From NCBI GenBank assembly GCA_025150425.1, contig CP102281.1, positions 1,116,001-1,180,000 on the forward strand: a DNA stretch of 64,000 bases, written 5' to 3'. A program made the translations under genes and the position numbers. Below are positions 23,533 through 28,812 of the stretch, piece after piece. Each line of letters begins with the position of its first letter. The stretch's first letter is position 1. Below the pieces are notes generated by a model that was given only the letters and a program-made list of their open reading frames with translations, was not told where the DNA came from and ran no database searches. Origin of the DNA: [Eubacterium] siraeum. Lineage in GTDB: Bacteria; Bacillota; Clostridia; Oscillospirales; Ruminococcaceae.

Positions 23533-23696
23533 CAATATGTCGATATTTGCATTCGACAGGAAAAAGTTTTGTCAAGGATATTATCATACAAATTTTTCAA
23601 AGTCTTTTTGGTAATAATTCGGCTTGTTTTTTGTGAATAATTGTAGTAAACTTAATTATGATTTTAGATTTATGCCTATTGAAAGGTGGTGTTCCG

Positions 23697-24008
23697 ATGG
23701 ATGTAATCAGCGAGATTATCGCTTATGAGAAGCACGCCGAAGAAATAGTTGCACAGGCAAACAAAAAAGCCGAAGCCATTCTTTCCGATGCGGCGGCTCT
23801 CCGTGAAAAAGAACGTATCGTCTGCGAAGAAGAACGCAGTGACAAGATAAACAGCTATCACGATGAGCTTAAAAAGAGCGGAGAAGAGCATTGCTCTGCG
23901 ACTGCAGCCGAGTGCAACGCTGTCATTAAGCGTCTTGACGATGAATTCTCGAAGAACAGGGATAAATGGACAGACGAGATATATAAAAATATCATTTCGG
24001 TTGAATGA
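23697..24008 (+). CDS. V-type ATPase subunit G/H-like stalk protein
   Basis: 103 residues from ATG 23697, preceded by AAAGGTGGTG. An entirely helical, charged protein (AEEIVAQANKKAEAILSDAAALREKER) of the type that pairs with subunit E in the peripheral stalk. It is first in the V-ATPase operon, 31 bases before subunit C. The role is assigned from position and composition, since G/H subunits are poorly conserved. Confidence 0.75.
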   Translation: MDVISEIIAYEKHAEEIVAQANKKAEAILSDAAALREKERIVCEEERSDKINSYHDELKKSGEEHCSATAAECNAVIKRLDDEFSKNRDKWTDEIYKNIISVE

Positions 24009-25100: not shown

Positions 25101-27410
25101 ATGGCAGTTGAGAAGATGTCACTTATATCGGTCAGCGGACCTCTCAAAAAAGTCAATAAAACTCTTGTACGATGTTGCGAAACGAAATGCTTTCACATTG
25201 AGCCGTCATTTTATACCATGACCTACGGCTCCGCACATTTCAAGACGCTGAAAGACAAGGACATTTACGGCGGTCTTATGAAACGAGCGGATGTATTGTC
25301 CGTCGGGCTTGGGATAAAAAACAAAACCGTTTCGTATGACGATATACAGATGGAGGCAATCCATGACTTCGATATGTATTTCACTGAGCTTGAACAGCGT
25401 GTGATGCCTGTCATAGAGCAAAAGAACGAGCTTGAGAAATCAATAGACGAATACAGCCATGTATTAAGGCAGGTCGGAAATCTGTCGAATCTAAACGTTG
25501 ATTTCAAGGATTTGTTCAGCTGTAAGCACGTCAAGATACGTTTCGGCAAATTGCCGTCGGAAAGCTATACTAAGCTCGATTTCTACAGCGAAAAAGGCTT
25601 TGTGTTTGAGCCGCTTGAAGAAAAGGACGGTTATGTCTGGGGGCTTTATTTCGCCCCGGTGGAAGAAAGCGTACAGATAGACGATATTTTCAGAAGCCTT
25701 TATTTTGAGCGGATACGTTTACCGGACTTCCTTCACGGCGACGGAGAAACTGCCGCCGCAGAGCTTAACAGACAGCTTAAGGAACTGGAAATAAAGCTGA
25801 AGGATGTAAAGGAAGAGCTTGCGGTCATAAAGAAAAATGAAGAAACGCAGTTTGAAAAGGTGCGCAGCAAGCTGATTTTCCTTAACAACAGCTATGAGCT
25901 TAGAAGTCAGGTTTCTGTAATCAACAATAAATTCTATATGGCGGGTTTTGTCCCGACAAGAGAAGTAGAAAAGTTCAGGGAGCATCTGTCGGGCGTATCG
26001 GATATTGTTATCGAGGAAAAGAAGTATTTTGTCGATGACAGGATGAAGCCTCCGACAAAACTCAGAAACAACCGGCTGTTCAGACCGTTTGAGATGTTCG
26101 TCAATATGTACGGCTTGCCGTCATACACGGGTATCGACCCGACACCGTATGTCGCTATAACGTATATGCTGATATTCGGCATAATGTTCGGCGATCTCGG
26201 ACAAGGGCTTGTAATCTCGCTTTTCGGATTTATACTCACAAAGTGGAAGAAAGCAAAGCTCGGTCCGATAATGGAACGTATCGGCATAAGTTCGGCAATA
26301 TTCGGCTGTCTTTATGGCTCGGTGTTCGGAAATGAAGATATAATAAAGCCTTTCTTCCATATCGAACCGCTTTACTCTGTACTCGGAAAGCCGAACAGCA
26401 TATTCCAGATTTCAACCTATCTGCTTATAGCGGCGCTTGCGATAGGTGTCATATTGATAGTGGTTTCAATGACGATGAATATTGTGCTGTCATTCAGGCG
26501 CAAGGATTATTCCTCCGCACTGTTCGGAGCAAACGGCATAACCGGTATGATATTCTATATCGCAGTCGTAGCGGCGGCAGGACTTCAGCTCGGATTCGGC
26601 ATTGAGATGTTCACATTGCCGTATATACTTCTTCTGGTGATACTGCCACTCGGCATTATGATGTTCAAAGAGCCTCTTGCACACCTTGTCGCAAACTCGA
26701 TAAAACGCAACGTTGTCAATTTAAAGCATAAGACGGTTGCCGATGCGGCAATAATGGCTTCCGATACGCTGAGCGAAGAATTGCTCAGAAAAACAAGAGA
26801 AGACCTCGAAAAGCTGAACGATCTGAAATTTGTCCGTGCGGTTTACGGAAAGATGCCTCGTGAAAGCTATGACAAGCTGGGATACTTTACAGACAAGGAA
26901 TTTGTGTTCATTCCTATCACCGAAAACGACGATAACGTCTATGGCGTTTATTTTGTATCAAAACAGCACAGGGCAATGGTAGATGATATATTTGCAGGCC
27001 TTTATTTTGAACGTATGAAGATGCCCGCAGAGCTTACGTCACCCGGAAGACCCGACCAGAACGATAAGGATAAGCCGAAGGAGAAAAAGTCTGTCGGCAA
27101 CTTCATTATTGAAGGCGTCATCGAACTGTTCGAAACCTGTCTTTCATATCTTACAAACACAATGTCATTCCTCCGTGTAGGCGGATTTATCCTGAGCCAC
27201 GCAGGTATGATGCTGGTCGTAGGAGTGCTGGCTGGCGACGGAGGCGTCGGTACCGTGATTGTACAGATACTCGGAAACGCTTTCGTAATCGGTATGGAGG
27301 GATTCCTTGTAGGTATTCAGGTATTAAGACTTGAATTTTATGAGATATTCGGTCGTTTCTATGTAAGCGACGGAAAGAGCTTTGAGCCGCTTAAGGCAAA
27401 TTTGAATTAA
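25101..27410 (+). CDS. ntpI: V-type ATPase subunit I with internal lobe duplication
   Basis: 769 residues, about 100 more than most bacterial homologues. It is the membrane stator (subunit a/I) that carries protons or Na+ at the ring interface. An N-terminal cytoplasmic alpha/beta lobe and coiled coil (1-310) precede the multi-helix membrane domain; the conserved helix TMSFLRVGGFILSHAGM near residue 695 is present. Residues 141-213 (GKLPSESYTKL, FVFEPLEEKD, IDDIFRSLYFERIRLP) reappear at 575-647 (GKMPRESYDKL, FVFIPITEND, VDDIFAGLYFERMKMP) inside the loop before that helix. This is a clear intragenic duplication. It is followed by subunit K. Confidence 0.95.
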   Translation: MAVEKMSLISVSGPLKKVNKTLVRCCETKCFHIEPSFYTMTYGSAHFKTLKDKDIYGGLMKRADVLSVGLGIKNKTVSYDDIQMEAIHDFDMYFTELEQRVMPVIEQKNELEKSIDEYSHVLRQVGNLSNLNVDFKDLFSCKHVKIRFGKLPSESYTKLDFYSEKGFVFEPLEEKDGYVWGLYFAPVEESVQIDDIFRSLYFERIRLPDFLHGDGETAAAELNRQLKELEIKLKDVKEELAVIKKNEETQFEKVRSKLIFLNNSYELRSQVSVINNKFYMAGFVPTREVEKFREHLSGVSDIVIEEKKYFVDDRMKPPTKLRNNRLFRPFEMFVNMYGLPSYTGIDPTPYVAITYMLIFGIMFGDLGQGLVISLFGFILTKWKKAKLGPIMERIGISSAIFGCLYGSVFGNEDIIKPFFHIEPLYSVLGKPNSIFQISTYLLIAALAIGVILIVVSMTMNIVLSFRRKDYSSALFGANGITGMIFYIAVVAAAGLQLGFGIEMFTLPYILLLVILPLGIMMFKEPLAHLVANSIKRNVVNLKHKTVADAAIMASDTLSEELLRKTREDLEKLNDLKFVRAVYGKMPRESYDKLGYFTDKEFVFIPITENDDNVYGVYFVSKQHRAMVDDIFAGLYFERMKMPAELTSPGRPDQNDKDKPKEKKSVGNFIIEGVIELFETCLSYLTNTMSFLRVGGFILSHAGMMLVVGVLAGDGGVGTVIVQILGNAFVIGMEGFLVGIQVLRLEFYEIFGRFYVSDGKSFEPLKANLN

Positions 27411-28218: not shown

Positions 28219-28812
28219 ATGCCGGAAGTTCAGGACAGAATAGAAAAGCTGGGCAATTCAATTCTTTCCGACGCTCAGAAAAAAGCGGAAGAAATAATCA
28301 GCAAGGCACAGCAGCAGGCTGACGAGCTGACAGAGCAGGCGAGAGAGCAGTACAGACGCAGTGAAGAAAACGAGGTCGCACTCGACAGACAGAAGACCCA
28401 TACTCTTTACGCAAAGGAATTATCAAAGAGCGACTTTGCCGCACATAAGTCGGTGCTTGCTCACAGGTGCGGGCTTGTAGACAGCTTGTTTGAAGATATT
28501 AAGAATAAACTTGAAGAATTTGCAAAGAGCGATAAATATAACGACTTTATGACCGCTCTTGCCGAAAAAGCAGACAAAGAGCAGGCTTTCAGCAAAGACT
28601 GCGTGATAAACGTCGGCAGAAACGATAATCAGCTTGCCGATGATATAGCGCAGAAGTACGGCATCAGTGTTGCTGTTGACCGTAATATCGAGCTTGGCGG
28701 ATTGTCTGTTTACTATCCGTCGGAAAATATATATATCGACTATACGCTTGACCTTGCTTTAGAACAGGAGCGAAAGGCTTTTGTGGCAGGTCACGGCGAA
28801 CTGTCACTATAA
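28219..28812 (+). CDS. ntpE: V-type ATPase subunit E
   Basis: 197 residues. The N-terminal half is a stalk helix (AQKKAEEIISKAQQQADELTEQ), the C-terminal half a globular head (CVINVGRNDNQLADDIAQKYG, ELGGLSVYYPSENIYIDYTLD) that binds the A3B3 crown. It pairs with the G/H-like protein in the peripheral stalk. It is 14 bases before subunit A. Confidence 0.9.
   Translation: MPEVQDRIEKLGNSILSDAQKKAEEIISKAQQQADELTEQAREQYRRSEENEVALDRQKTHTLYAKELSKSDFAAHKSVLAHRCGLVDSLFEDIKNKLEEFAKSDKYNDFMTALAEKADKEQAFSKDCVINVGRNDNQLADDIAQKYGISVAVDRNIELGGLSVYYPSENIYIDYTLDLALEQERKAFVAGHGELSL

What the first reader, a model, noticed from the sequence alone, without database searches (positions are those of the whole stretch)
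25521..27045. V-ATPase subunit I carries an intragenic duplication inserted in its membrane domain
A 73-residue piece of the cytoplasmic lobe (residues 141-213) recurs at 575-647 inside the loop before the conserved RVGGFILSHAGM helix. Shared blocks include GK-P-ESY-KL, FVF-P, DDIF--LYFER and a final -P. Standard subunits lack it. It could add a second contact to the peripheral stalk or a regulatory site.
Basis: seen in the sequence. Interest (0 to 1): 0.75.

Follow-up and report, generated by a model that had tools for sequence, protein, structure and literature searches.

The report
Ion pump stator with extra lobe
A gut-type bacterium's rotary ion pump carries a second copy of the small domain that normally clamps the pump's outer stalk, inserted in a loop of its membrane part; relatives carry a copy in the same loop, and one of them has lost the original, so the fixed frame of the pump has been rebuilt in evolution in a way we found no report of.

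Summary
Subunit I of the V/A-ATPase (25101-27410, 769 aa) contains its distal-lobe domain twice: in the normal place in the cytoplasmic arm (residues 136-212) and in the cytoplasmic loop between TM6 and TM7 (570-646). The copies are 43% identical over 82 aa (score 187; maximum of 1000 shuffles 69). Both are predicted as beta-alpha-beta-beta-alpha lobes; the loop copy is under purifying selection and lies in an intact operon.

It is not a general clostridial feature: most relatives are about 650 aa and lack it. In the window's genus 26 of 48 species with the gene have it. The same loop carries a lobe in two other genera of the family. In one of them, three species have both lobes and a fourth keeps only the loop lobe. 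One species (G033) has three lobes. Independent gains look likely, but tree tests do not exclude a single origin.

Best explanation: an added stator lobe that docks or braces a peripheral (EG) stalk. Its nearest structural neighbours are the I/a arm and subunit C, including the EG-binding C head, of V-ATPases. The binding partner is inferred, not shown; a rotor brake is the main rival. New variant of a known kind.

The parts
25101..27410 (+). ntpI/atpI: V/A-ATPase subunit I, 769 aa, with two distal lobes
   Evidence: PF01496 E 3e-30; full-length relatives 45-93% identical
25506..25736 (+). copy 1: canonical distal lobe of the cytoplasmic arm, residues 136-212
   Evidence: lobe profile 2e-36; strand-helix-strand-strand-helix in the model
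26808..27038 (+). copy 2: duplicated distal lobe in the TM6-TM7 loop, residues 570-646
   Evidence: lobe profile 9e-31; 43% identical to copy 1; same predicted fold; purifying selection
26709..27080 (+). whole insertion relative to standard homologues, about residues 537-660 (pre-linker, lobe, charged post-linker)
   Evidence: alignment with insertion-free relatives
25359..25478 (+). outgoing helix of the arm coiled coil, residues 87-126
   Evidence: model secondary structure
25743..25910 (+). returning helix of the arm coiled coil, residues 215-270
   Evidence: model secondary structure
26616..26708 (+). TM6 and its cytoplasmic extension, about residues 506-536
   Evidence: model secondary structure; order of helices in the family
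27093..27233 (+). TM7 region, residues 665-711, with invariant Arg692 (ion-path arginine by homology)
   Evidence: invariant column in 16 relatives; model; equivalence to Thermus R563/yeast R735 is by position before TM8
23658..24008 (+). peripheral stalk subunit G/H, single copy in the operon
   Evidence: V-ATPase_G weak match; position in operon
28219..28812 (+). peripheral stalk subunit E, single copy in the operon
   Evidence: position and length; recognised in relatives' operons

Best explanation
Copy 2 is a functional duplicate of the distal lobe of subunit I, tethered on the cytoplasmic face between TM6 and TM7. It acts as an additional stator element, most likely an extra docking or bracing site for the N-terminal end of an EG peripheral stalk, fixed directly to the membrane domain rather than at the tip of the long coiled-coil arm. 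Shown: the duplication, its place, a predicted fold, purifying selection, lobes in the same loop in three genera, and a relative in which only the loop lobe remains. Inferred: that the partner is EG, and whether the lobe holds a third stalk, takes over anchorage of the distal stalk (as may be so in G051), or braces a stalk near the membrane. In the window's genus the interface has probably been modified.
For: [quoted passage not shown] The nine best PDB neighbours of the loop-lobe model are all V-ATPase stator chains: Thermus I, the I N-terminal domain, eukaryotic a, and subunit C including the C head from the EG-Chead crystal. dN/dS of the loop lobe 0.03 between nearest relatives, as for copy 1. 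Genus g51: G726, G838 and G963 have both lobes, G051 only the loop lobe, with an otherwise complete operon. Loop lobes of g51 and g33 keep the arm-lobe signature residues.
Against: No binding data and no reliable model of the complex (full-length pTM 0.46). Loop lobes of the window's genus have lost Trp180 and mostly Arg147, so they may not bind EG in the same way. Operons hold single E and G genes, which neither supports nor excludes a third stalk. PDB fold E-values are weak, 0.003-0.03. The relocation case rests on one genome.
Confidence: 0.5

Rival explanations
1. Rotor brake: the loop lobe sits beside the c-ring and rotor subunit C (d) and restrains rotation when V1 is detached or under some signal, reusing the second known contact of the distal lobe (to subunit d in isolated Vo).
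For: The distal subdomain contacts subunit d in isolated Thermus Vo and is thought to block the rotor there (PMC7367684); the TM6-TM7 loop lies near the c-ring face of the subunit; altered conserved residues in the window's genus suggest a changed partner.
Against: Does not explain why G051 could lose the arm lobe while keeping the loop lobe unless that lobe also serves the stalk; a permanent brake near the rotor would cost activity.
Confidence: 0.2
2. Structural brace only: the lobe packs on the proximal or distal lobe of its own arm and stiffens the stator, without a new partner.
For: The pre-linker is partly helical and about 33 aa long, and the post-linker about 15 aa, which would keep the lobe close to the membrane and the arm base.
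Against: Nothing tested; the post-linker evolves fast (dN/dS 0.16-0.46 in most pairs), which suits a loose tether more than a rigid brace.
Confidence: 0.15
3. Neutral passenger: a tolerated insertion in a permissive loop without a function.
For: The loop lobe evolves faster than the rest in clade B (dN/dS 0.10-0.19); 22 species of the genus lack it.
Against: Strong purifying selection in the window's clade (0.03-0.06), fold and motif retained over long divergence, lobes in the same loop in three genera, loop lobe kept while the arm lobe was lost in G051.
Confidence: 0.1
4. On origin only: one ancient loop duplication in the family ancestor with many losses, rather than repeated gains.
For: The AU test on the 77-column lobe alignment does not reject one clade of all loop lobes (p 0.13) or of those of the genus (p 0.28).
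Against: The G033 loop lobe is nearest its own arm lobe (54.5% against 37.7% to any other loop lobe; support 96/83); g51 loop lobes group with arm lobes of their relatives; most genera in between lack it; flanking linkers differ.
Confidence: 0.25

Closest known systems
V/A-type ATPase subunit I (a) of Thermus thermophilus and the I N-terminal domain structure (PDB 6qum, 5gar, 3rrk)
   Same: Same subunit: arm with proximal and distal lobes, eight TM helices, TM7 arginine; whole model matches 6r0z/6qum at E about 1e-19
   Different: About 650 aa, one distal lobe, short TM6-TM7 loop
Enterococcus hirae V-ATPase subunit I (PDB 8wci)
   Same: Closest solved relative by sequence (E 2e-21)
   Different: 672-residue chain; between the aligned blocks it has about 55 residues where the query has about 186, so no room for a loop lobe
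Eukaryotic V-ATPase subunit C, head domain (PDB 4dl0, 4efa, 1u7l)
   Same: Similar small alpha/beta lobe among the best fold neighbours of the loop lobe; C head binds EG with high affinity and holds the third stalk EG3 (PMC3470569)
   Different: A separate soluble protein of another family; resemblance is of fold, not shown to be homology
Stand-alone arm gene of G648 and tandem-lobe subunits I of G033, G099, G062/G157/G677 (found here)
   Same: Other ways of multiplying the distal lobe in the same bacterial order
   Different: Extra lobe is in the arm or in a separate gene; only G033 also has the loop lobe

Membership tests
V/A-ATPase subunit I (PF01496) | Profile match above the curated cut-off | tested here: met
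   105.3 bits against a cut-off of 30.7
V/A-ATPase subunit I (PF01496) | Conserved TM7 arginine and C-terminal two-helix region | tested here: met
   R692 and the TM7-TM8 block invariant in 16 relatives
V/A-ATPase subunit I (PF01496) | Operon with G, C, K, F, E, A, B, D | tested here: met
V/A-ATPase subunit I (PF01496) | One distal lobe, in the arm only | tested here: not met
   two lobes, one in the TM6-TM7 loop: a variant architecture within the family
Distal lobe of subunit I/a (copy 2) | Sequence homology to arm lobes | tested here: met
   9e-31 to the lobe profile (which includes it); BLASTP 1e-15 to copy 1 and up to 2e-16 to arm lobes of relatives without the insertion
Distal lobe of subunit I/a (copy 2) | Same fold | tested here: met
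   same order of strands and helices as copy 1; best PDB neighbours are I/a arms and subunit C; predicted models, weak E-values
Distal lobe of subunit I/a (copy 2) | Near-invariant arm-lobe residues Arg147 and Trp180 | tested here: not met
   Val581 and Tyr614 in the window; kept in loop lobes of g51 and g33
Distal lobe of subunit I/a (copy 2) | Binds an EG peripheral stalk | not testable with these tools
   needs binding assay or structure
Eukaryotic subunit C (works-like comparison only) | Holds a third EG stalk | not testable with these tools
   stalk number in this organism is unknown
Eukaryotic subunit C (works-like comparison only) | Separate soluble subunit | tested here: not met
   the lobe is part of subunit I

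The most novel reading that the evidence does not exclude
The loop lobe anchors a third EG stalk, so these bacteria have V/A-ATPases with three peripheral stalks, reached independently of the eukaryotic solution with subunit C; and in G051 stalk anchorage has moved from the arm to the membrane loop.
Probability: 0.2. Interest if true: 0.85.

Novelty: new variant of a known kind. Interest (0 to 1): 0.62.

Why it matters
The number and anchorage of peripheral stalks separates bacterial and archaeal from eukaryotic V-type ATPases, and how the eukaryotic collar arose from one made of a single subunit is open. Here, within one bacterial order, the stalk-docking lobe has been copied into a membrane loop, copied in tandem in the arm, lost from the arm where a loop copy exists, and once the whole arm exists as a separate soluble protein. 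These are natural experiments on what the distal lobe does, and they are directly testable by structure and by deletion.

Tried and rejected
Chance or low-complexity repeat: rejected. Assembly error or fusion: rejected, since the same architecture occurs in 26 species of the genus. General old clostridial feature: rejected by family, class and phylum scans. Decaying insert: rejected by dN/dS. Foreign domain gained by transfer: no sign; G+C of the insert equals that of the gene (44%), and the nearest lobes are those of the same family. The lobe profile found no V-ATPase chain in the PDB by sequence, so known structures were reached by fold comparison only. The full-length model (pTM 0.46) was used for secondary structure, not for the placement of the lobe. 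The AU test meant to show several origins was inconclusive. A fold search against viral structures was started by mistake and not used.

Full report
CHECK. The gene at 25101-27410 encodes a 769-aa subunit I inside a complete V/A-ATPase operon. Residues 134-215 and 568-649 align without gaps, 43% identical, E 1e-15; the score is 187 against at most 69 in 1000 shuffles. A profile built from lobes finds two lobes, at 136-212 and 570-646.

WHAT IT IS. Copy 1 is the distal lobe at the tip of the coiled-coil arm of the cytoplasmic half; in yeast the distal lobe is residues 183-256, also about 74 aa (PMC3470569). Copy 2 lies between the sixth and seventh long helices of the membrane half, just before the TM7 helix with the conserved arginine. 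With the arm in the cytoplasm and eight TM helices (PMC10313074) this loop faces the cytoplasm; the Lys/Arg-rich stretch after TM6 agrees. AlphaFold2 gives the same order of strands and helices for both copies, and the core of the isolated loop lobe is modelled with pLDDT 85-92. The nine best PDB neighbours of that model are all V-ATPase chains: Thermus I, the I N-terminal domain, eukaryotic a, and subunit C including the C head from the complex with EG. The E-values are weak, 0.003-0.03.

HOW WIDESPREAD. Family scan (199 genomes): 139 matches, of which only the three genomes of the window's genus align from end to end in one piece. Genus scan (71 species, loops read): 48 have a match; 26 have the loop lobe and 22 lack it. 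Most of the 22 have a longer linker (NIDTGLK...) that may be a remnant. Class scans of 391 genomes show no other loop lobe. Phylum scan with PF01496: in about 35 genomes where both conserved blocks are listed, the blocks lie roughly 330-500 bp apart, against 796 bp in the window; this was read off the table by eye, and the table is cut. Within the family a loop lobe is also present in genus g51 (G051, G726, G838, G963) and in G033.

RELOCATION AND MULTIPLICATION. G051 has a 730-aa frame, an arm without lobe (the coiled coil closes in a short turn) and a loop lobe; the profile finds one lobe in the whole genome, a 2-contig assembly. Its operon is otherwise complete. Three species of the same genus have both lobes, so the simplest reading is gain of the loop lobe and later loss of the arm lobe. 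It rests on one genome. G033 has a 919-aa frame and three lobes: two in tandem in the arm and one in the loop. G062, G157, G677 and G099 have two tandem lobes in the arm and no loop lobe. In G648, of another family of the order, a separate 353-aa frame between C and I encodes the soluble arm alone; it was not found in the other 119 genomes of its family that were sampled.

ORIGINS. The core tree, with insert columns left out, places the three loop-lobe lineages apart; at least three changes are forced by starred branches. In the lobe tree the G033 loop lobe joins its own arm lobe (96/83), the g51 loop lobes form a clade among arm lobes of their relatives, and those of the window's genus fall into two groups. 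The AU test does not reject a single origin (p 0.13). Several gains are therefore likely but not proven. Within the window's genus one gain and one or two losses is the simplest reading.

SELECTION AND RESIDUES. dN/dS of the loop lobe is 0.030 between the window and its nearest relative (copy 1: 0.028), 0.03-0.06 in a second set of close species, and 0.10-0.19 in clade B; dS is high, so the values are rough. Of the residues nearly invariant in arm lobes, the loop lobes of g51 and g33 keep Arg147 and Trp180. In the window's genus 19 of 22 sampled loop lobes have Val, Ile or Gln at the first, and none has Trp at the second. The loop lobes that stand alone or beside tandem lobes thus look arm-like, and those of the window's genus look modified.

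MECHANISM. [quoted passage not shown] In A-type enzymes the collar consists of subunit a/I alone (PMC6131620). An extra copy of this lobe fixed at the membrane would most simply add, move or brace a stalk anchor; G051 suggests that a loop lobe can stand in for the arm lobe. A brake on the rotor is the main rival. No experiment or reliable model of the complex was available to decide, hence confidence 0.5.

NOVELTY. Full-text searches of the open literature found no report of a second distal lobe in subunit I; papers of subscription journals are mostly not held. It is a new variant of a known subunit, not a new kind of system.

Noticed in passing
L136 / L151:5720-7909 (-) (G051:C1): Subunit I without the arm lobe, keeping only the TM6-TM7 loop lobe; three relatives of its genus have both. 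Apparent relocation of a domain within one protein.
   Followed up: partly
L129 / L154:4604-7360 (+) (G033:C26): Subunit I of 919 aa with three distal lobes, two in tandem in the arm and one in the TM6-TM7 loop.
   Followed up: partly
L156:5829-6887 (-) (G648:C31): Stand-alone 353-aa gene for the soluble arm of subunit I, directly upstream of the full gene; a separate collar-like protein in a bacterial V/A-ATPase operon.
   Followed up: partly
L157, L155, L131, L132 (G157, G677, G062, G099): Tandem distal lobes in the arm of subunit I without a loop lobe; G922 (984 aa) and G853 (780 aa) in another family may be similar.
   Followed up: partly
G021:C112:12570-14157: Subunit I matches in two neighbouring frames of 331 and 376 aa (arm and membrane half); split gene or frameshift.
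   Followed up: no
L054-L059, L109-L124: Species of the window's genus without the loop lobe mostly have a TM6-TM7 linker some 25-30 aa longer than usual, with a conserved NIDTGLK motif, perhaps a remnant of a lost lobe.
   Followed up: no
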